A program made the translations under genes and the position numbers. The notes beneath the pieces were generated by a model. The model did not search any database, was not told the DNA's origin, and saw only the letters and a list, made by a program, of their open reading frames with translations. This document shows positions 20,247 through 29,112 of a stretch of 34,423 bases of DNA, piece by piece. Source of the stretch: Pseudomonadota bacterium (GTDB taxonomy: Bacteria > Pseudomonadota > Gammaproteobacteria > Burkholderiales > JAKAFK01); assembly GCA_021817985.1 (NCBI GenBank), contig JAKAFK010000042.1, forward strand, positions 1 to 34,423. The letters run 5' to 3'. Position 1 is the stretch's first letter, and each line of letters opens with the position of its first letter.

Positions 20247-21317
20247 ATGACTCGCCCGCTTGAAGCACGCATCAGCGCATCGGCGCTTGCGCATAATCTC
20301 GCGCTCGCCAGGCAGCGCGCGCCGGGCGCGCGCGTGATGGCGGTCATCAAGGCCAATGGATATGGCCATGGGCTGTTGCGGGTCGCCCAGGCCCTCGGGG
20401 CGGCGGACGGTTTTGCGGTCTTGACGGTCGACGAGGCACTCGCCTTGCGCGCACAGGGCGTGGCGCAGCCCATTCTGTTGCTGGAAGGGCTTTTTTCCGG
20501 TACCGAGCTCGCGGCCGCGCGCGCGCATGCGCTCAGCCTGGTGGTCCACAGCGCAGCGCAGCTCGAGGCCCTTGAGACCTGTGGGCCCGGCGCTGCGCTC
20601 GAGGTCTTCTGCAAGATCAACACCGGCATGAATCGGCTCGGGTTCATGCCGGAGGCGCTACCCGGCGTGGTCAAACGCCTCACGGGCGCGGCCGCCGTCA
20701 AGCGCATCACGCTGATGACCCATTTTGCCTGTGCGGATGAGGCGGGCGGCATCGACCCGCAACTGGAACGGTTTGCGCACGCCACCGCCCCGTATCGCTT
20801 GCCGCGAAGTCTCGCCAACTCGGCAGCGCTCATGAGCGACCCGCGAACGCATGGGGAGTGGGTGCGTCCGGGAATCATGCTCTATGGCGTATCGCCCTTC
20901 GCCGGACGGGCGGGCGTCGAGCTCGGGCTGCGCCCGGCCATGACGCTTGTCAGCCGCGTCATCGCCGTGCAGGCTGTCCAGGCGGGGGAGCGGGTGGGGT
21001 ATGGGGGCAGCTTTGAAGTGCCGCACGCGATGCGCCTGGGGGTCGTCGCCTGCGGCTATGCAGACGGCTATCCGCGGCACGCGGGTACTGGAACGCCGGC
21101 GCTCGTCGATGGCCGGCGCACCCGGCTCATCGGACGCGTGTCGATGGACATGCTGTGCGTGGATCTGACTGACCTGCCGTCGGCAGGGGTGGGAAGCGCC
21201 GTGACCTTATGGGGCGAAGGGTTGCCGGTTGAAGAAGTGGCGGTCGCGGCGGGGACGATAGGCTATGAGTTGCTGTGTGCGCTCGCCCCGCGGGTGGGCG
21301 TGGTCGATGTGAGCTGA
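20247..21317 (+). CDS. alr: Alanine racemase
   Basis: Alanine racemase makes D-alanine for peptidoglycan with pyridoxal phosphate. The 356-residue protein has the cofactor-binding Lys35 in AVIKANGYGHG, the motif KINTGMNRLGF, MTHFACAD, WVRPGIMLYGVSP, the second catalytic residue Tyr252 in ERVGYGGSF, and GYADGYPRH plus GRVSMDM near the end. Length is typical. Codon use and composition match the neighbours. It sits between dnaB and radA on the same strand, with 39 and 29 base gaps, so the three genes may share a transcript. Confidence 0.96.
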   Translation: MTRPLEARISASALAHNLALARQRAPGARVMAVIKANGYGHGLLRVAQALGAADGFAVLTVDEALALRAQGVAQPILLLEGLFSGTELAAARAHALSLVVHSAAQLEALETCGPGAALEVFCKINTGMNRLGFMPEALPGVVKRLTGAAAVKRITLMTHFACADEAGGIDPQLERFAHATAPYRLPRSLANSAALMSDPRTHGEWVRPGIMLYGVSPFAGRAGVELGLRPAMTLVSRVIAVQAVQAGERVGYGGSFEVPHAMRLGVVACGYADGYPRHAGTGTPALVDGRRTRLIGRVSMDMLCVDLTDLPSAGVGSAVTLWGEGLPVEEVAVAAGTIGYELLCALAPRVGVVDVS

Positions 21318-21346
21318 CTGTTTCGAGGGGGCGCTGCGGGACGCGT

Positions 21347-22705
21347 ATGGCCAGACAAAAATCCGTTTTCGCCTGTGGCGCGTGTGGCGGGCAGAGCAGC
21401 AAGTGGGTCGGTCGCTGCCCGCATTGCGGCGCCTGGAATTCGCTCGTCGAGGCGGCGTCCTCCCATCAGCCGGCCCGTTTCGGCGGGCTTGCCGCGCCGA
21501 GCGCTGTGCAGAGCCTGGCCGAGGTCGAAGCCGATGAGGTGCCGCGGCTTGAAACCGGCATCGGTGAATTGGACCGTGTGCTGGGCGGGGGACTGGTGCA
21601 AGGGGGGGTGACCCTGATCGGTGGGGACCCCGGGATCGGCAAATCCACCTTGCTCCTGCAGGCGCTGGCCCGTCTTGGGCGAGAGCGGCCGGTGCTGTAT
21701 GTCACCGGAGAGGAATCGGCCGCCCAGGTGGCGTTGCGCGCCAAGCGTCTTGCGCTGGACGTGGGCCCCGTCCGCTTGCTGGCCGAGATCCAAGTCGAGA
21801 ACATCTTGGCGGTCATCGCCGCGGAAAGCCCGCAGATCGTCGTCATCGACAGCATCCAGACCGTGTATTCGGAGCTGCTGCCCTCGGCCCCCGGCAGCGT
21901 CGCCCAAGTGCGCGAATGCGCCGCGCAGCTGACGCGGACGGCCAAAAGCCGCGGCATATCGGTCATCCTCGTAGGCCATGTGACCAAGGAGGGCGCCCTG
22001 GCCGGCCCGCGCGTGCTCGAGCACATCGTGGATACGGTCCTTTACTTCGAAGGCGATGCCAGTTCCAGCTTCCGGCTCGTCCGGGCCTTCAAGAACCGCT
22101 TTGGGCCCATCAATGAACTGGGCGTGTTCGCCATGACCGACAAGGGGCTGCGGGCGGTGAGCAACCCTTCCGCGTTGTTCTTGTCCCATCACGACGCGCA
22201 GGTCGCGGGCAGTTGCGTCATGGTGACGCAGGAGGGCACGCGTCCTTTGCTGGTCGAGGTCCAAGCCCTCGTCGATCCCTCGCACGCCCCTGTGCCGCGA
22301 CGCTTGTCCGTGGGCCTCGAGCAAAACCGGCTGGCGATGCTGCTGGCGGTCTTGCACCGCCATGCCGGCATTGCCTGCTTCGATCAGGACGTTTTCGTCA
22401 ACGCGGTGGGGGGGGTGCGCATCACGGAGCCTGCAGCCGATCTGGCCGTCTTGCTCGCGATTGTCTCGAGCCTCAGGGACCGGGCCTTGCCGACGAAGCT
22501 GCTGGCCTTCGGCGAAGTCGGGCTCGCCGGCGAGATACGGCCCGTCCAGCGCGGCGCGGATCGTCTGCGCGAGGCGGCCAAGCTGGGCTTTACCCATGCC
22601 ATCATTCCGAAGCCCAACCAACCCAGGAACGATATTCCCGGCTTGACCGTTTACCCGGTGGGCCGCCTGGAGGAGGCGGTTGCCTATTGCCGGGACGCAT
22701 CATAG
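21347..22705 (+). CDS. radA: DNA repair protein RadA
   Basis: RadA is a RecA-like, DnaB-like helicase that extends strand exchange in recombination repair. The 452-residue protein has an N-terminal C4 zinc finger (Cys10, 13, 24, 27: CGAC...CPHC), the Walker A motif GDPGIGKS (residues 93-100), the RadA-specific KNRFGPINELGVF, and a C-terminal Lon-like domain without protease function (VFVNAVGGVRITEPAADLAV, GEVGLAGEIRPV). The ATG at 21347 gives the canonical start MARQKSVFACGACG; upstream in-frame codons lie in alr and are not used. The gene is complete. Confidence 0.96.
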   Translation: MARQKSVFACGACGGQSSKWVGRCPHCGAWNSLVEAASSHQPARFGGLAAPSAVQSLAEVEADEVPRLETGIGELDRVLGGGLVQGGVTLIGGDPGIGKSTLLLQALARLGRERPVLYVTGEESAAQVALRAKRLALDVGPVRLLAEIQVENILAVIAAESPQIVVIDSIQTVYSELLPSAPGSVAQVRECAAQLTRTAKSRGISVILVGHVTKEGALAGPRVLEHIVDTVLYFEGDASSSFRLVRAFKNRFGPINELGVFAMTDKGLRAVSNPSALFLSHHDAQVAGSCVMVTQEGTRPLLVEVQALVDPSHAPVPRRLSVGLEQNRLAMLLAVLHRHAGIACFDQDVFVNAVGGVRITEPAADLAVLLAIVSSLRDRALPTKLLAFGEVGLAGEIRPVQRGADRLREAAKLGFTHAIIPKPNQPRNDIPGLTVYPVGRLEEAVAYCRDAS

Positions 22706-22832: not shown

Positions 22833-23585
22833 ATGGGCCGTTTGCAATTTGCAGGCGCAAGCGATATCGGACGGTTGCGCGGCCGCAACGAGGATGCGTT
22901 GGGCTTCGTACCCGAGTTGGGCCTTGCCGTGGTGGCCGATGGGGTTGGCGGCAATGCGGCCGGGGATGTGGCGAGCGCTATTGCGGTCGACATGGCCATC
23001 GCCGCCTTCCGCCGGGAACCAGGCGGCGTCGGGCGCGAGCAGCGGCTGTCGCGCCTGAAGCGCGCGGTGGAAGCGGCCAATACGGAGATCTTCTCGCGGG
23101 CCACGGAAGTGTCCGAATACTACGGCATGGGCTCGACGATCGTGGCTGCGGCGTTTGCCGATGAGGTCGCAGCCATTGCCAGCGTCGGGGACTCCCGGGT
23201 CTACCGGCTTCGCCAAGGGCAATTGACGCAGTTGACGGTGGATCATACCGTCGTCCAGGAAGAGATCGACCGCGGATGGCTGGACGCCACCGTCGCCGCA
23301 ACCTCCCCGTCCTGGGGTGTCTTGACGCGGGCGCTTGGCGTGGAACCCGAAGTGGCAGTCGACGTGCGCGAAGACTCCGCCTATCCGGGAGACCTTTTCC
23401 TGTTGTGCACGGATGGGTTGTCCGACGTGCTGGAGGCGGGGGAAGTCGAGCAGATGGCCAGCCGTCAAGAGGACCTGGCGGAACTCGCGCGAGACCTTGT
23501 GTTCAGAGCGAATGAAAAAGGCGGGTTTGACAACATCTCCGTGCTCTTGGTGGGCATCGGCCCTATTGCGGGCGGGCGGTGGTGA
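22833..23585 (+). CDS. PP2C-family Ser/Thr protein phosphatase (copy 1)
   Basis: This 250-residue protein is a compact PP2C-type phosphatase that should remove phosphate from Ser/Thr with two metal ions. The metal-binding and catalytic landmarks are RGRNEDA (Glu20, Asp21), VADGVGGN (Asp36), SVGDSRVYR, LLCTDGLSD (Asp194) and GGFDNISVLLV (Asp233). It has no membrane helix or extra domain. The ATG at 22833 has AAGGGG just upstream; the open frame further upstream overlaps radA and lacks support. An FHA gene follows after 54 bases. With the kinase at 24820-26388 it probably forms a reversible phosphorylation system, and it is related to the phosphatase at 26767-27594. Confidence 0.92.
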   Translation: MGRLQFAGASDIGRLRGRNEDALGFVPELGLAVVADGVGGNAAGDVASAIAVDMAIAAFRREPGGVGREQRLSRLKRAVEAANTEIFSRATEVSEYYGMGSTIVAAAFADEVAAIASVGDSRVYRLRQGQLTQLTVDHTVVQEEIDRGWLDATVAATSPSWGVLTRALGVEPEVAVDVREDSAYPGDLFLLCTDGLSDVLEAGEVEQMASRQEDLAELARDLVFRANEKGGFDNISVLLVGIGPIAGGRW

Positions 23586-23639
23586 TCGGAAAGCGCCCAG
23601 CCGGCCTGCGGGCATGGCGGGGCACGCATAGGGGCGGTG

Positions 23640-24368
23640 ATGCCTAAGTTGCTGATATACACGGACGGCGCGCTTGAGCGGGAGATCGATCTCACGCAAG
23701 AGCGCGTGCGCATCGGGCGCAAGTCGCACAATGACGTCAGGCTCTCCCAGCCGGGGGTGAGCGGGGAGCACGCCCTGGTGATCACGGTTCGCGACGAGTC
23801 CTTCATCGAAGACCTGAACAGCACCAATGGCGTGCGGGTGAACGGTCGTCTGGTCAAGAAATGTGCCTTGAAGGACGGGGATTCCATCGCAATCGGCGAC
23901 TATGTCCTGAAATACGTCGCCCAACGCACGCCCCACACGGGGGACACGGCCGCCGCGTGTGCTCGCACCGATTCCGATACGCTGCTGTCGTTTGGCGAAT
24001 TTCTCGAAGGCACGAGCCTGACGCAGACGCGGGCGATGAATGCCGCACCCGCCGCCGAGATCAGCGGCGCGCGTGCCGACGCCGAAATCGGCGGGTCATC
24101 GCCTTCCCGGGCCGCGCTCCAGATTCTGACCGGTCCCAGCGCAGGCAAGGAGTTGGACCTGTCGAAGAGTCTGACGACCCTGGGCAAGCCGGGGCAGCAG
24201 GTCGCGGTCATCACCCGCCGCGCCTCGGACTACTTCTTCACCCATGTGGACGGGGCTGAGGCGCCGCGGTTGAACGGCATGGCCGTGGGAAGCCAGTCGC
24301 TGCTGCTGAAAAACAGGGACATCATCGAGCTGGCGGGCATCCGCCTGGAATTCTTCCTGAAGACCTGA
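23640..24368 (+). CDS. FHA domain protein (copy 1), with a second FHA-like domain
   Basis: FHA domains bind phosphothreonine peptides. In this 242-residue protein the N-terminal FHA domain (about residues 1-95) has all key residues: Gly26-Arg27 in VRIGRKSHNDV, Ser41 and His44 in SGEHALV, and NSTNG at 60-64. A linker of about 60 residues follows. The C-terminal domain (about 160-242) has an FHA-like pattern but lacks the GR and SxxH residues: LQILTGPSAGKELDL, then VAVITRRASDYFFTHV and LKNRDIIELAGIRLEFF. The ATG 23640 has AGGGG five bases upstream; GTG 23637 is possible. It forms a pair with the upstream phosphatase and is convergent with the lipoprotein gene. Confidence 0.9.
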   Translation: MPKLLIYTDGALEREIDLTQERVRIGRKSHNDVRLSQPGVSGEHALVITVRDESFIEDLNSTNGVRVNGRLVKKCALKDGDSIAIGDYVLKYVAQRTPHTGDTAAACARTDSDTLLSFGEFLEGTSLTQTRAMNAAPAAEISGARADAEIGGSSPSRAALQILTGPSAGKELDLSKSLTTLGKPGQQVAVITRRASDYFFTHVDGAEAPRLNGMAVGSQSLLLKNRDIIELAGIRLEFFLKT

Positions 24369-24400
24369 TCGTACGTTCCGCTGACGCACCGCCTGACGGA

Positions 24401-24808
24401 CTAGCGCTTCGCGGCGGGCAGCTTCGCCTTGACGCTGCTGAAAATGGGTCCCCAGATCGGATGCCCGGCCTCCGCCGTCGACAGCTCGAAGTTGGGGTCG
24501 ATGGCCAGAGCCTGTTCGAATTCCTTCCGGCATGCGCCCTGATGATTGGACGTGCAGTCGATGAAGGCCAGATACTTGTGCGCGGTAATCTGTTCCTTCT
24601 TGGAGGGCAGACCGAGCGCGAGCGCATGGCTGAGCGACTGGGCGGAGCGCTTGTAGTGGCCATTCTCGTAGTCATGAACGCCGACGGCAAGCGCCTGCTC
24701 GGCTTGCTTGGCCGGCGATGGCCCGCCCGTTCCATGCATGGGCATCAGAGCGCAGCTTCCGAGAGTCAGCAGGGCGCTCACGGCGAGCGCGCGGGACACA
24801 CTTCGCAC
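24401..24808 (-). CDS. TPR-like lipoprotein, TssQ family-like
   Basis: The 135-residue protein has a lipoprotein signal (LAVSALLTLGSCALMP, acylated Cys near residue 19). Its TPR-like helical body reads KQAEQALAVGVHDYENGHYK, AQSLSHALALGLPSKKEQI, AHKYLAFIDCTSN and CRKEFEQALAIDPNFEL, then a conserved end AEAGHPIWGPIFSSVK. This end and the HKYLAF block resemble what I recall of the TssQ family of T6SS-associated lipoproteins; this is memory, not a search. No T6SS gene is in view. GTG 24808 is the likely start, with AGGAA nine bases upstream; GTG 24799 is possible. It lies 11 bases after the kinase stop, clearly in one operon with it. Confidence 0.75.
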   Translation of the reverse strand: MRSVSRALAVSALLTLGSCALMPMHGTGGPSPAKQAEQALAVGVHDYENGHYKRSAQSLSHALALGLPSKKEQITAHKYLAFIDCTSNHQGACRKEFEQALAIDPNFELSTAEAGHPIWGPIFSSVKAKLPAAKR

Positions 24809-24819
24809 TTAAAATATTC

Positions 24820-26388
<1,569 letters not shown>

Positions 26389-26421
26389 TGAAATCGCGGT
26401 GAAAATTGGACGAAAATGCGG

Positions 26422-26449
26422 GAAATAGGCTGACGGCTGCGGAAGTCAA
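26422..26449 (-). promoter_or_regulatory. Candidate promoter of the kinase-lipoprotein operon
   Basis: On the minus strand TTGACT (26449-26444) and TATTTC (26427-26422) are separated by 16 bases. Transcription would start near 26415, about 27 bases before the kinase ATG, in an AT-rich leader without a recognisable ribosome binding site. The -35 match is good and the -10 match weak. Confidence 0.4.
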
Positions 26450-26647
26450 CACATTAGTTTTTTCGATAAGGAATGTCAAGGGCGCCGGTACACCTTCGCC
26501 CGGGCCTGCATATGCCCCCGTGCAGGAAGTTCTGTGGGCCTCGCATCTGCGCATGACCTGCGGCCTCCTTTTTCTCGGAATGACATTGACATTATCTGTG
26601 CCAACGCGGACGATAGACCTTGGCTCGCGGCCGATGTCAACCAGAAC

Positions 26648-26676
26648 TTGGAGAATGCCTCCAATGCAGATAGAAT
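26648..26676 (+). promoter_or_regulatory. Candidate sigma70 promoter of the second phosphatase-FHA pair
   Basis: TTGGAG (26648-26653) and TAGAAT (26671-26676) are exactly 17 bases apart. Transcription would begin near 26683 and the leader would reach the ATG at 26767. An inverted repeat (26663-26689) lies across the -10 box. A separate TTGACA at 26586-26591 lacks a good -10 at normal spacing. The rest of the 378-base divergent gap between kinase and phosphatase shows no coding or RNA signal that I recognise. Confidence 0.5.
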
Positions 26677-26689
26677 CTGTATCCGCATT
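26663..26689. repeat. Inverted repeat across the -10 box (possible operator)
   Basis: AATGCAGATA (26663-26672) and TATCCGCATT (26680-26689) are inverted copies with one mismatch, separated by GAATCTG. A shorter alternative pairing CAGAT-AGA-ATCTG lies inside the same stretch. The repeat covers the predicted -10 box and transcription start of the downstream phosphatase gene, the placement expected of a repressor operator. It might instead be an RNA hairpin if transcription starts upstream. No regulator can be named. Confidence 0.5.
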
Positions 26690-26766
26690 TGCGCCGCGAG
26701 GATGCTTGCTCGCCGGGTGAGGCACGGGTGAGTCCCGGTATGATAACTGAAGGACGCGTATGACAA

Positions 26767-27594
26767 ATGGCTGTGCGCAGTAAGATCGAAATTGCCAGCG
26801 CAACCGATGCGGGTCTTGTACGTTCCTTTAACGAGGATAGCCTAGCATATGACGAGGCGCTTGGACTTTGCGTGCTCGCCGACGGCATGGGGGGCTACAA
26901 GGCGGGGGATGTCGCCAGTAGCATGGCTACCCGGCTGGTTCTGGAGGAATTCGCCGCGATCACGCGCCACGAGGGGGACGCGGGGGGGGAGGAGGACGGG
27001 TTGTCTGCCCCGGGCGCGGCCCTGAAACGCGCCATCGAGCGGGCCAATGGCGCCATTCACCGTGCGGCGCAGTCCGACAAGAGCTGCCAAGGCATGGGGG
27101 CGACGGTGGCCGCCGTCATTTTCCATGGCCCGCGCGCCGCAGTTGCGCATGTCGGCGATTCCCGGGTGTACCGGTATCGCGACGGCGATCTCGCCTTGTT
27201 GACCCATGACCATTCGCTGCTGCAGGAACAAGTGGGGCTCGGTCTCATCACGCCCGAAGATGCCAAGCTCTCGCACAATCGCAATCTCGTCACGCGGGCA
27301 CTCGGGGTCGGCCACCAGGTGAAGGTGGATGTGCGCGAAGAGGGGGCGCAGGTCGGCGACATCTATCTGCTGTGCTCGGATGGCCTCAACGACATGGTCG
27401 ACGATGCCGATATCGGGCTCGTGCTGGCCGAGCTCAACGCCAACCTGCCCTTGGCGGCCAGCCAACTGGTGCAAATCGCCAACGACAATGGGGGCCACGA
27501 CAACGTTTCGGTGCTCATCGCGCAAGTCGGTGCCCGCCCTCGCCCCGCCCGCGGATGGTGGAGGCAATTGTTTTCCTCTTTCGGCATCGCGTGA
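26767..27594 (+). CDS. PP2C-family Ser/Thr protein phosphatase (copy 2)
   Basis: A 275-residue PP2C phosphatase, homologous to the one at 22833-23585 but distinct in detail. Landmarks are RSFNEDS (Glu23, Asp24), LADGMGGYKAGDVAS (Asp39), HVGDSRVYRYRDGDLALLTH, LLCSDGLND (Asp205) and GGHDNVSVLIAQV (Asp245). A Glu/Asp/Gly-rich insert near residues 66-80 is absent from copy 1, and it ends in a short Arg/Trp-containing tail (RPARGWWRQLFSSF). GAAGGA lies 13 bases before the ATG, a rather long distance. The second FHA gene follows after 16 bases. It should oppose the divergent kinase. Confidence 0.93.
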   Translation: MAVRSKIEIASATDAGLVRSFNEDSLAYDEALGLCVLADGMGGYKAGDVASSMATRLVLEEFAAITRHEGDAGGEEDGLSAPGAALKRAIERANGAIHRAAQSDKSCQGMGATVAAVIFHGPRAAVAHVGDSRVYRYRDGDLALLTHDHSLLQEQVGLGLITPEDAKLSHNRNLVTRALGVGHQVKVDVREEGAQVGDIYLLCSDGLNDMVDDADIGLVLAELNANLPLAASQLVQIANDNGGHDNVSVLIAQVGARPRPARGWWRQLFSSFGIA

Positions 27595-27610
27595 TGCGGG
27601 ATACTCCCCG

Positions 27611-28297
27611 ATGGCCAAACTGATTCTGAGCGGCGGCAGCGTCTCCGGACACTATTTCATCGACAACCCGCGCTTTTCGATCGGGCGCAGCGAGACCAAC
27701 GATGTCGTGCTAGACGATGCGGGCGCGAGCAAGCTGCATGCGCTCATCCTCACGGTCGGCAACGACCAGATCCTGGAAGACCAAGGCAGCACGAATGGCA
27801 CCTGGGTCAATGGGACGCAAGTCAACCGCCACATTCTGCAGAACAATGACGTGATCCGGATCGCGGGCTTCCAGCTCAAGTATGTCAATCAGCGCGCGCT
27901 GCGCGAAATGGATTTCGACAAGACCATGGTGCTTGAGACGGTAGGCATCGGGCACCGCTCGCTGGGGCCAGGCTTCGAGGCGCCGGGGCTGCATACGGCC
28001 GCGGCCGAGGCGCGCGCCCGGCGCGCCAACTTCCCGCTGGGCGTCGTGCGGATCACGCAAGGGCCGGCGACCGGCGAGGAAGTGGTGCTCAGCCGGGTGG
28101 TGAAGGCATTCGGCCCGCCGGGAGTCCAGCAGGCCGTGATCACCCGCCGGCCGCATGGCTATTATCTGACGCATGTGGTAGGCAGGCGCCACCCGAAGGT
28201 GAACGGGCGGTCGGTGGGCGCCAAACCCTATGCCCTGCAGGACCAGGATGTGGTGGAGATCGCCGACGCCGTGCTGGTCTTCGCACTGAAAGCTTAG
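27611..28297 (+). CDS. FHA domain protein (copy 2), with a second FHA-like domain
   Basis: This 228-residue protein has the same two-part plan as the FHA protein at 23640-24368. The N-terminal FHA domain has Gly25-Arg26 in FSIGRSETNDVVL, Ser40 and His43 in SKLHALIL, and STNG at 60-63, so it should bind phosphothreonine. The linker holds FDKTMVLETV, a Thr-containing segment of a kind that could itself be a kinase target (inference). The C-terminal domain matches copy 1 in VVRITQGPATGEEVVLS, QQAVITRRPHGYYLTHV and LQDQDVVEIADAVLVFAL, and lacks FHA ligand residues. It is paired with the upstream phosphatase and convergent with the dehydrogenase gene 18 bases away. Confidence 0.92.
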   Translation: MAKLILSGGSVSGHYFIDNPRFSIGRSETNDVVLDDAGASKLHALILTVGNDQILEDQGSTNGTWVNGTQVNRHILQNNDVIRIAGFQLKYVNQRALREMDFDKTMVLETVGIGHRSLGPGFEAPGLHTAAAEARARRANFPLGVVRITQGPATGEEVVLSRVVKAFGPPGVQQAVITRRPHGYYLTHVVGRRHPKVNGRSVGAKPYALQDQDVVEIADAVLVFALKA

Positions 28298-28315: not shown

Positions 28316-29053
28316 CTAGCAGGCGAGCACTTGCCCGGTCGTCCCGGCGCTATCGCGTCCCATGAGGTAGAGATAGGTCGACATCAGATCTTCCGGCTTG
28401 CGCATGGTGTCCTTGAGTTCGGCCGGATGGGTCCGAAGGCGCAGCGGGGAGTCGACAGGTCCCGGGATCAGGGCGTTGATCCGGACGTTCGAGTAGATTT
28501 CGAGCTCTTGTGCCCAAATGGTCACCATCGCCTCGAGACCGCATTTGGAAACCGCATAAGGGCCCCAGTAGGCCGAAGGGGCATGGCCGTGGGTTTCCCC
28601 GGTCACGACCACGGATGCGTCGGGCGCCTTCTTGAGCAGCGGCATGCAGGCTTGCGTCAGCGCGAAGGGCGCCATCAGGTTGACGCGCAGCGTGGCGAGC
28701 CAAGACTCGAGGTTCTGGTGTTCGAGCGGGGTCAGGCTGGTGAAGTGGGCCGCGTTGTGCAAGATGCCGTCGAGGCGGCCGATCTGGCTGGAAATGGCCT
28801 GAGCCAGTGCGGCGAAATCCTTGCCCTCGGCCTTCTCCAGGTCCAGCGGAAAGATGGCCGGTTGGGGGTAGCCGGCTTGCTCCATTTCATCGTAGACCGC
28901 CTCGAGCTTCTGGACTTTGCGGCCGTGCAGGATGACGGTCGCCCCATGGGCCGCGAAGGTTAACGCCGCGATGCGCCCGATGCCCTGGCCTGCGCCGGTC
29001 ACCAGGATGACGCGGCCCGAGAGCAGGTCGGCGGGTGCCTGATAATTGTCCAT
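28316..29053 (-). CDS. YciK-like short-chain dehydrogenase/reductase
   Basis: The 245-residue protein follows E. coli YciK closely in plan: YQAPADLLSGRVILVTGAGQ then GIGRIAALTFAAHGATVIL (cofactor loop), DLEKAEG, GRLDGILHNAAHF, and Tyr166-Lys170 in WGPYAVSKCGLEAM. The Ser that normally precedes Tyr by 13 residues is replaced: the stretch reads VVVTGETHGH, with Glu153 and Thr154 at that place. Thr154 might substitute, or activity may be altered. YciK's substrate is unknown. I take ATG 29053; a TTG at 29071 in frame would add six residues. It lies 60 bases after hpnE on the same strand. Confidence 0.87.
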   Translation of the reverse strand: MDNYQAPADLLSGRVILVTGAGQGIGRIAALTFAAHGATVILHGRKVQKLEAVYDEMEQAGYPQPAIFPLDLEKAEGKDFAALAQAISSQIGRLDGILHNAAHFTSLTPLEHQNLESWLATLRVNLMAPFALTQACMPLLKKAPDASVVVTGETHGHAPSAYWGPYAVSKCGLEAMVTIWAQELEIYSNVRINALIPGPVDSPLRLRTHPAELKDTMRKPEDLMSTYLYLMGRDSAGTTGQVLAC

Positions 29054-29112
29054 CCCGAGATCATTCCTCAAAACGTGCGGCGCTCACCGGTAACCTGGGC
29101 GGGCCGCCATGG

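What the first reader, a model, noticed from the sequence alone, without database searches (positions are those of the whole stretch)
22833..28297. Two phosphatase-FHA gene pairs flank a divergent kinase-lipoprotein pair
The sequence shows PP2C-FHA (plus), lipoprotein and kinase (minus), then PP2C-FHA (plus). Both FHA proteins share the same two-domain plan, so the pairs look like an old duplication around one kinase. Kinase, phosphatase and FHA reader together are known from PpkA/PppA/Fha control of type VI secretion and from mycobacterial Pkn systems, but two eraser-reader pairs for one writer is unusual. I infer a signalling device in which a periplasmic PEGA domain and an outer-membrane lipoprotein sense the envelope and two outputs are read separately.
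Basis: partly seen in the sequence, partly recalled or inferred. Interest (0 to 1): 0.7.

Follow-up and report, generated by a model that had tools for sequence, protein, structure and literature searches.

The report
Envelope-sensing kinase with two reader pairs
A conserved gene cluster of betaproteobacteria pairs an inner-membrane protein kinase and a probable outer-membrane lipoprotein with two phosphatase-reader pairs, and its sensor half also appears on a different enzyme and beside protein-injection machines, so it looks like a reusable way of reporting the state of the cell envelope.

Summary
The arrangement is not peculiar to this genome: the full two-pair locus, between alr-radA and an SDR gene with hpnEDC, was found in 15 of 300 sampled genomes of the order, in five families. 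It enlarges a core, <FHAb <PP2Cb | KinPEGA> Lipo>, that also occurs alone. PP2Ca is missing in five genomes that keep the rest, so two erasers are dispensable. The pairs are old, separate lineages; whether they are each other's closest relatives is unresolved.

The strongest result lies outside the claim. The lipoprotein (NCBIfam 'TssQ family, T6SS-associated') and a PWGEV-type PEGA domain are nearly inseparable: both in 91 of 300 genomes, one alone in 4. The PEGA protein is a kinase here, cyclase-like in the syntenic locus of other families, or a T6SS kinase. Eleven of the 15 full-locus genomes have no T6SS sheath gene.

Best explanation: the lipoprotein touches the periplasmic PEGA domain and sets kinase activity; the kinase phosphorylates a conserved linker Thr (FHAb T105) of GarA-like FHA proteins; PP2Cs reset it. 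Contact, signal and phosphorylation are inferred. New variant of a known kind.

The parts
22833..23585 (+). PP2Ca, PP2C Ser/Thr phosphatase; the seven motif residues checked are present
23640..24368 (+). FHAa, two-domain FHA protein (canonical FHA1, degenerate FHA-like domain 2)
23979..23981 (+). FHAa Thr114 (DSDTLL), candidate phosphosite; looser form of the linker motif
   Evidence: aligned column Thr in 22, Ser in 2 of 26 FHAa rows
24401..24808 (-). TssQ-family TPR-like lipoprotein, lipobox Cys19 invariant in alignment A3, GTG start
24820..26388 (-). Ser/Thr kinase with one predicted TM and a C-terminal PEGA domain
24826..25017 (-). PWGEV-type PEGA domain (kinase residues 458-521)
25324..25380 (-). 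predicted transmembrane segment between kinase and PEGA (residues about 337-355)
   Evidence: hydropathy only, peak 1.69
25897..25899 (-). activation-loop Thr164 of the kinase
   Evidence: Thr in 45 of 46 A-type kinases, Ser in 1
26767..27594 (+). PP2Cb, PP2C Ser/Thr phosphatase, divergent from the kinase
27611..28297 (+). FHAb, two-domain FHA protein; FHA1 folds like GarA/OdhI
27923..27925 (+). FHAb Thr105 in DFDKTMVL, at the start of the disordered linker; candidate kinase target
   Evidence: Thr in 48 of 48 FHAb rows
21275..22705 (+). radA, conserved flank (alr 20247-21317 before it)
28316..29071 (-). YciK-like SDR, followed by hpnE, hpnD, hpnC (to 32552): conserved other flank

Best explanation
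The locus is a trans-envelope Ser/Thr kinase switch, built like the PpkA-PppA-Fha pathway of type VI secretion but used apart from it. A TPR-like lipoprotein, probably on the outer membrane, contacts the PEGA domain that the inner-membrane kinase displays in the periplasm. That contact reports spacing or stress of the envelope and sets kinase activity. The active kinase autophosphorylates its activation loop, the FHA1 domain docks there (as GarA does on PknB), and the kinase phosphorylates a conserved Thr in the linker behind FHA1 (T105 in FHAb). The phospho-linker is then bound by an FHA1 domain, in cis or trans, which changes what the second, FHA-like domain can bind. PP2Cb resets the switch. 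PP2Ca-FHAa, downstream of radA, is an optional second branch with a drifted linker site. Shown here: gene content, intact catalytic residues, conserved linkage of lipoprotein and PEGA, topology by hydropathy, the conserved Thr, the predicted FHA1 fold. Inferred: outer-membrane location, contact, signal, phosphorylation, docking, separate outputs.
For: Lipoprotein and PWGEV-type PEGA: 91 of 300 genomes have both, 4 have one; PEGA within 600 bp of the lipoprotein in 86 of 95 G-set loci, 85 of them upstream on the same strand, and in 78 of 80 named loci (the two sets overlap). One TM between enzyme and PEGA in 80 of 81 kinase and 74 of 75 cyclase-type proteins (both sets). Kinase Lys, HRD Asp and DFG Asp are invariant in groups A, A0, B and D, and seven PP2C motif residues in groups a, b, D and d. 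Linker Thr: 48 of 48 FHAb, 25 of 28 cassette FHA, 22 Thr plus 2 Ser of 26 FHAa, at the start of a stretch with pLDDT under 50, residues 101-136. FHA1 is closest to GarA chains, among them GarA bound to PknB (ranks 1-6). Full locus in 15 of 300 genomes, five families. Precedent: TssW binds the periplasmic domain of PpkA, and PpkA phosphorylates Fha (PMC12607579: abstract, passages and section 6).
Against: I found no phosphorylation or binding data for this locus. FHAa occurs without kinase or lipoprotein in G035, so it need not belong to this kinase. In this genome a kinase-HDOD protein on contig C10, which has no PP2C or FHA match on its contig, could also use the pairs. Only 2 of 26 FHAa rows match the strict acidic linker motif, against 35 of 48 FHAb and 21 of 28 cassette rows. 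The pThr-contacting Arg of FHA1 is lost in 13 of 48 FHAb proteins, though not in the window. Co-occurrence counts are inflated by relatedness, and the PEGA model came from domains in loci fetched for their lipoprotein or FHA gene. In nine of 95 loci no PEGA domain lies within 600 bp; all nine are in genomes with a VipB match. The window's TM score is the weakest of the eight printed.
Confidence: 0.55

Rival explanations
1. The two pairs serve different kinases: PP2Cb-FHAb belongs to the divergent PEGA kinase, while PP2Ca-FHAa is a neighbour of radA that reads another kinase, in this genome perhaps the kinase-HDOD protein.
For: PP2Cb-FHAb stays divergent from KinPEGA-Lipo also where pair a was not seen (5 G-set and 18 named loci of class A:b+none; the sets overlap and some contigs end nearby). 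FHAa sits between radA and SDR without kinase in G035, whose genome has a separate Kin-PP2C-FHA cassette (L042, L043). The genome has a kinase without PP2C or FHA match on its contig. FHAa linker drifted.
Against: In 22 G-set loci FHAa is the direct, convergent neighbour of the lipoprotein gene (15 with PP2Ca, 7 without).
Confidence: 0.3
2. It is a relic or outlying part of a type VI secretion regulator (PpkA-PppA-Fha with its lipoprotein) whose machine was lost or lies elsewhere.
For: NCBIfam names the lipoprotein T6SS-associated; the lipoprotein sits between PEGA kinase and TagH in T6SS loci L158, L172, L179 (domains of L158).
Against: No VipA or VipB match in this genome. VipB in 4 of the 15 genomes with the full locus, each on another contig, and in 0 of 13 cyclase-type genomes tested. 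No T6SS_FHA_C match on either FHA protein. T6SS kinases and PP2Cs lie on long separate branches.
Confidence: 0.08
3. The arrangement is fortuitous: separate envelope and housekeeping genes carried along in a stable chromosomal stretch, without one pathway.
For: Flanks alr-radA and SDR-hpnEDC recur around different contents, so synteny alone may keep neighbours together.
Against: KinPEGA-Lipo with divergent PP2Cb-FHAb also occurs in loci where no radA or hpn gene was seen, and lipoprotein with PEGA also in T6SS and other loci.
Confidence: 0.07

Closest known systems
PpkA-PppA-Fha threonine phosphorylation pathway of T6SS, with TssW (Acidovorax citrulli)
   Same: Membrane kinase with periplasmic C-terminal domain, PP2C-type phosphatase, FHA protein, and an outer-membrane protein encoded beside the kinase that binds its periplasmic domain (PMC12607579)
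   Different: No T6SS gene among the neighbours identified and no sheath gene found in the genome; FHA proteins without T6SS_FHA_C domain; two phosphatase-FHA pairs; kinase far from the T6SS kinases of these loci
GarA/OdhI with PknB/PknG (actinobacteria)
   Same: FHA1 sequence and fold nearest GarA/OdhI; a conserved Thr outside the FHA domain in a disordered stretch
   Different: Thr is behind the FHA domain, not in an N-terminal ETTS motif; a second FHA-like domain follows; target unknown
NCBIfam NF038027 TssQ_fam lipoprotein
   Same: 108.9 bits against a cut-off of 65
   Different: 8 of 85 classified G-set loci hold T6SS markers within the stretch fetched. TssQ is also the name of a Bacteroidota T6SS component (PMC10781749, search listing only); its relation to NF038027 was not tested
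Kin-PP2C-FHA co-directional cassette of the same order
   Same: Same three enzyme types, same two-domain FHA plan and linker Thr
   Different: No lipoprotein or PEGA match recorded in these loci, genes in one direction; separate FHA clade

Membership tests
T6SS threonine phosphorylation pathway (PpkA-PppA-Fha) | kinase, PP2C and FHA genes together | tested here: met
T6SS threonine phosphorylation pathway (PpkA-PppA-Fha) | T6SS core genes in the genome | tested here: not met
   no VipA or VipB match in G000; assembly 96% complete; other core genes not searched
T6SS threonine phosphorylation pathway (PpkA-PppA-Fha) | FHA protein with T6SS_FHA_C domain (TagH) | tested here: not met
   no such match; TIGR03354 40.1 and 33.6 bits against 120.25
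TssQ_fam lipoprotein (NF038027) | score over the curated cut-off | tested here: met
   108.9 against 65 bits
TssQ_fam lipoprotein (NF038027) | association with T6SS, as the name says | tested here: not met
   for this window: no sheath gene in the genome; other members do lie in T6SS loci
TssW (A. citrulli) | sequence homology | not tested
   I had no TssW sequence; only gene position and behaviour agree (PMC12607579)
GarA/OdhI | canonical FHA domain with pThr-binding residues | tested here: met
   R26, S40, H43, N67 in window FHAb; fold
GarA/OdhI | N-terminal ETTS phosphorylation motif | tested here: not met
   FHAb begins with the FHA domain; its conserved Thr lies behind it; OdhI model 46.5 bits against 200
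GarA/OdhI | regulates 2-oxoglutarate dehydrogenase | not testable with these tools
   -
PknB-type kinase with PASTA repeats | periplasmic PASTA repeats | tested here: not met
   PEGA instead; NF033483 344.7 bits against 450
TagQRST | TagR, TagS and TagT beside the kinase | tested here: inconclusive
   none among the flanking genes identified; neither genome nor rest of window was searched for them

The most novel reading that the evidence does not exclude
The TPR-like lipoprotein and the PWGEV-type PEGA domain are one portable trans-envelope sensor. Evolution has attached it to three different outputs (a free-standing kinase with GarA-like two-domain FHA readers, a class III cyclase-like enzyme followed by a kinase with a C-terminal anchor, and the T6SS kinase), so that different pathways read the same envelope signal. 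The 'T6SS-associated' lipoprotein family is then mainly not a T6SS family.
Probability: 0.55. Interest if true: 0.75.

Novelty: new variant of a known kind. Interest (0 to 1): 0.6.

Why it matters
What bacterial membrane kinases sense is mostly unknown. A lipoprotein that is nearly inseparable from one periplasmic domain, across kinase, cyclase-like and T6SS contexts, names a candidate activating partner and makes the question testable in harmless isolates. It also warns that an automatic name ('T6SS-associated') misleads for most of the loci classified here. The invariant linker Thr gives a single residue by which to test whether these FHA proteins are kinase-driven switches.

Tried and rejected
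Rejected: membership in a T6SS (no VipA or VipB match). Left open: a tandem duplication of the pairs; trees conflict. On the quick PP2C tree (67 rows) the tree with PP2Ca+PP2Cb held together was 18.6 log units better than the free one (p 0.787); on the careful tree (57 rows) it was 9.5 units worse (p 0.273). Rows dropped as long branches: L188, L188 and L236, L070, L236, L051, L052, L038 and L050; near-duplicates and sequences under 196 residues were dropped in all these trees.

Led nowhere: a plasmid search with a T6SS-locus lipoprotein (3 records, no annotated feature under the match); paper searches for PEGA domain with kinase, phosphatase and FHA domain (0 papers), with type VI secretion (0), with adenylate cyclase (0), with FHA (0); with lipoprotein and kinase 4 papers, judged from the listing only; FHA domain, PP2C, Betaproteobacteria, kinase, hopanoid, at least four of the five terms (0); TssQ searches gave 5 and 2 papers, listing only. 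Promoter-terminator scan: 3 promoter-like sites (shuffles 0.9), 4 terminator-like (shuffles 3.7). Foldseek gave the lipoprotein only weak TPR matches (best E 0.012).

Own errors: four genomes without the lipoprotein (G110, G115, G126, G150) were put in by mistake; they are left out of all counts. G-set and named loci overlap (some contigs have the same length, e.g. L192 and G045:C70), so their counts are not added together. Ten of the 95 G-set lipoprotein loci were not classified.
Full report
Observation. All six genes are present and intact at the stated place. The kinase has Pkinase and PEGA domains; both phosphatases are Stp1-like PP2Cs just under the NCBIfam cut-off (223.7 and 228.6 against 230 bits); each FHA protein has a canonical FHA domain. 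The lipoprotein belongs to NF038027 (TssQ_fam). Flanks are alr and radA on one side, a YciK-like SDR and hpnE, hpnD, hpnC on the other.

Is it more than one genome's accident? FHAa was sought in 60 relatives (39 with a match at E <= 1e-8) and the lipoprotein family in 300 genomes of the order, the own genome included (92 with a match, 91 over the cut-off). Regions around the matches were fetched and annotated with models built from them. One search counts 95 G-set loci with the lipoprotein; one search classified 85 of them: full two-pair locus with radA 15 (15 genomes; families f1 2, f15 3, f29 1, f45 1, f50 8); the same without PP2Ca 5 (f15); KinPEGA-Lipo-FHAa beside radA without pair b in the stretch 2 (f47; in G047 pair b lies beside SDR-hpn on another contig); KinPEGA-Lipo with pair b only 5; KinPEGA-Lipo alone 3; CycPEGA-Lipo with or without a following kinase 35, of which 11 have radA in the stretch; T6SS loci 8; other PEGA-Lipo 9; other 3. 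Ends of contigs hide neighbours in some loci (for example L111). Named relatives with the full locus include Sulfuricella denitrificans (L246) and a Hydrogenophilales bin (L251); Sulfuricella sp. T08 (L249) has it without PP2Ca; Thiobacillus and Azoarcus loci show the one-pair form, and so, on contigs that end nearby, do Azonexus and Sulfuriferula.

The pairs. Within 23 loci FHAa and FHAb are 35.5-43.6% identical, and within 18 loci PP2Ca and PP2Cb 40.2-47.5%. Window FHAb is 50-58% and PP2Cb 54-66% identical to four compared orthologues; FHAa (40-54%) and PP2Ca (42-51%) less so, which suggests that pair a changes faster. FHAb is one clade (100/99), FHAa with the radA-linked G035 protein one clade (100/98), cassette FHAs one clade (93/88); this tree has no outgroup, so it cannot say which two are sisters. 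Rooted on T6SS PP2Cs, PP2Cb joins the cassette PP2Cs (96/90) to the exclusion of PP2Ca; the outgroup is distant, and the AU tests allow PP2Ca+PP2Cb. Hence: old, separate lineages; sisterhood unresolved.

The sensor. The lipoprotein has an invariant lipobox Cys, two further invariant Cys (85, 93) and a conserved EAGHPxWGP end; AlphaFold gives two TPR-like hairpins (mean pLDDT 88.5). The residue after Cys19 is Ala; by the Lol rule, recalled, that allows outer-membrane sorting. The PEGA domains next to it form a subfamily with PWGEV and SPPL motifs. Across 300 genomes both occur in 91, lipoprotein alone in 1 (G128, below the cut-off), PEGA alone in 3, neither in 205 (Fisher p 3e-72, inflated by relatedness and by how the model was built). 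The best PEGA match lies within 600 bp of the lipoprotein in 85 of 94 genomes; six of the nine others have it 1.3-10.5 kb away on the same contig, three have no lipoprotein. Of 113 PEGA-subfamily matches in all, 87 lie within 600 bp of a lipoprotein; the rest are mostly weaker second matches elsewhere.

The swap. In a second set of families the locus, in part syntenic with the window's, holds CycPEGA > Lipo > Kin >. The PEGA-bearing protein has a class III cyclase-like domain (Pfam Guanylate_cyc, over the cut-off in 3 of 4 proteins scanned, narrowly), one TM and PEGA (74 of 75). The kinase that follows has no PEGA; 57 of 61 have a hydrophobic segment behind the kinase domain. Kinases of both forms group together, without a starred branch (87), and apart from T6SS kinases (99, starred). 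So the periplasmic half stays with the lipoprotein while the cytoplasmic enzyme changes. Whether the cyclase is active was not tested.

T6SS. In L158, L172 and L179 the order is KinPEGA, Lipo, TagH, PP2C, TssA, TssB, TssC (L158 domains). The window genome has no VipA or VipB match. Of the 56 lipoprotein genomes among the 60 given, VipB is present in 4 of the 15 with the full locus (G029, G205, G265, G294, each on another contig), 0 of 5 f15 genomes without PP2Ca, 1 of 2 f47 genomes (G090), 0 of 5 one-pair genomes, 0 of 13 cyclase-type genomes, and 14 of 16 others, mostly T6SS-type loci or large genomes. In A. citrulli the outer-membrane protein TssW, encoded between ppkA and fha, binds PpkA in pull-downs and its periplasmic domain in two-hybrid tests; extra PpkA restores Hcp secretion in its absence but not the position of the apparatus (PMC12607579, section 6). 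The gene position matches our T6SS loci; homology of TssW to this family was not tested.

The switch. Behind FHA1, in an otherwise variable linker, the FHAb consensus is D-F-[DE]-[RK]-T-[ML]: Thr in 48 of 48 rows (35 match the strict pattern); cassette FHA Thr in 25 of 28 (21 strict); FHAa Thr in 22 and Ser in 2 of 26 (2 strict). AlphaFold leaves residues 101-136 disordered between two beta domains (mean pLDDT 81.3, pTM 0.46, so the relative placing of the domains is not reliable). FHA1 matches GarA and OdhI best. In GarA/OdhI the phosphorylated Thr lies in a conserved ETTS motif (PMC8546545, passages); that it is bound by the protein's own FHA domain I take from the title of a paper in its reference list (Nott 2009) and from recall. 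Kinase activation-loop Thr164 is conserved in 45 of 46 A-type kinases. That these form a dock-and-phosphorylate cycle is inference.

Other kinases at home. The genome also has a kinase-HDOD protein on C10, a contig without PP2C or FHA match; a kinase-PP2C pair on C12 without FHA, nearest to T6SS-type kinases by BLAST (35-39% identity); and an FHA domain on a T2SSE-type ATPase beside a secretin gene on C177. So both two-domain FHA proteins have this kinase as their only neighbouring kinase, but not as the only possible writer.

Verdict. Real and conserved, with intact active sites; a new variant of the PpkA-type design, with a sensor pair that recurs on different outputs. I know of no experiment on this locus; searches of the held open-access papers returned nothing on PEGA domains with kinase-phosphatase-FHA, T6SS, cyclase or FHA, and the four papers were judged from the listing.

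Noticed in passing
L110, L112, L115, L126, L150, L161 and other B-type loci: Class III cyclase-like domain, one TM and PWGEV-type PEGA in one protein, followed by the lipoprotein and a kinase with a C-terminal hydrophobic segment; several lie between radA and SDR-hpn genes as in the window.
   Followed up: partly
L272:6547-8997 (+), own genome contig C10: Kinase fused to an HDOD domain; no PP2C or FHA match on that contig.
   Followed up: partly
L274:6959-8644 (+), own genome contig C177: FHA domain fused to a T2SSE-type ATPase in a gene string with RcpC/CpaB-like and secretin genes (Flp-type pilus).
   Followed up: partly
L043:8298-11569 (G035): FHAa sits between radA and the SDR gene with no kinase, lipoprotein or PP2C recognised, as if the rest of the locus had been lost or never gained.
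   Followed up: partly
L164, L165, L170, L185 (family f23): Two neighbouring lipoprotein matches beside one PEGA protein.
   Followed up: no
L037, L040, L042, L046, L054, L060 and others: Widespread co-directional kinase-PP2C-FHA cassette with the same FHA plan and linker Thr motif.
   Followed up: partly
L262, L264: Metagenome bins titled Bordetella parapertussis hold cyclase-type loci; the label is probably a misassignment.
   Followed up: no
L114:5203-5493 (G062): A second FHAb fragment lies beside a split or duplicated SDR gene, suggesting a partial local duplication.
   Followed up: no
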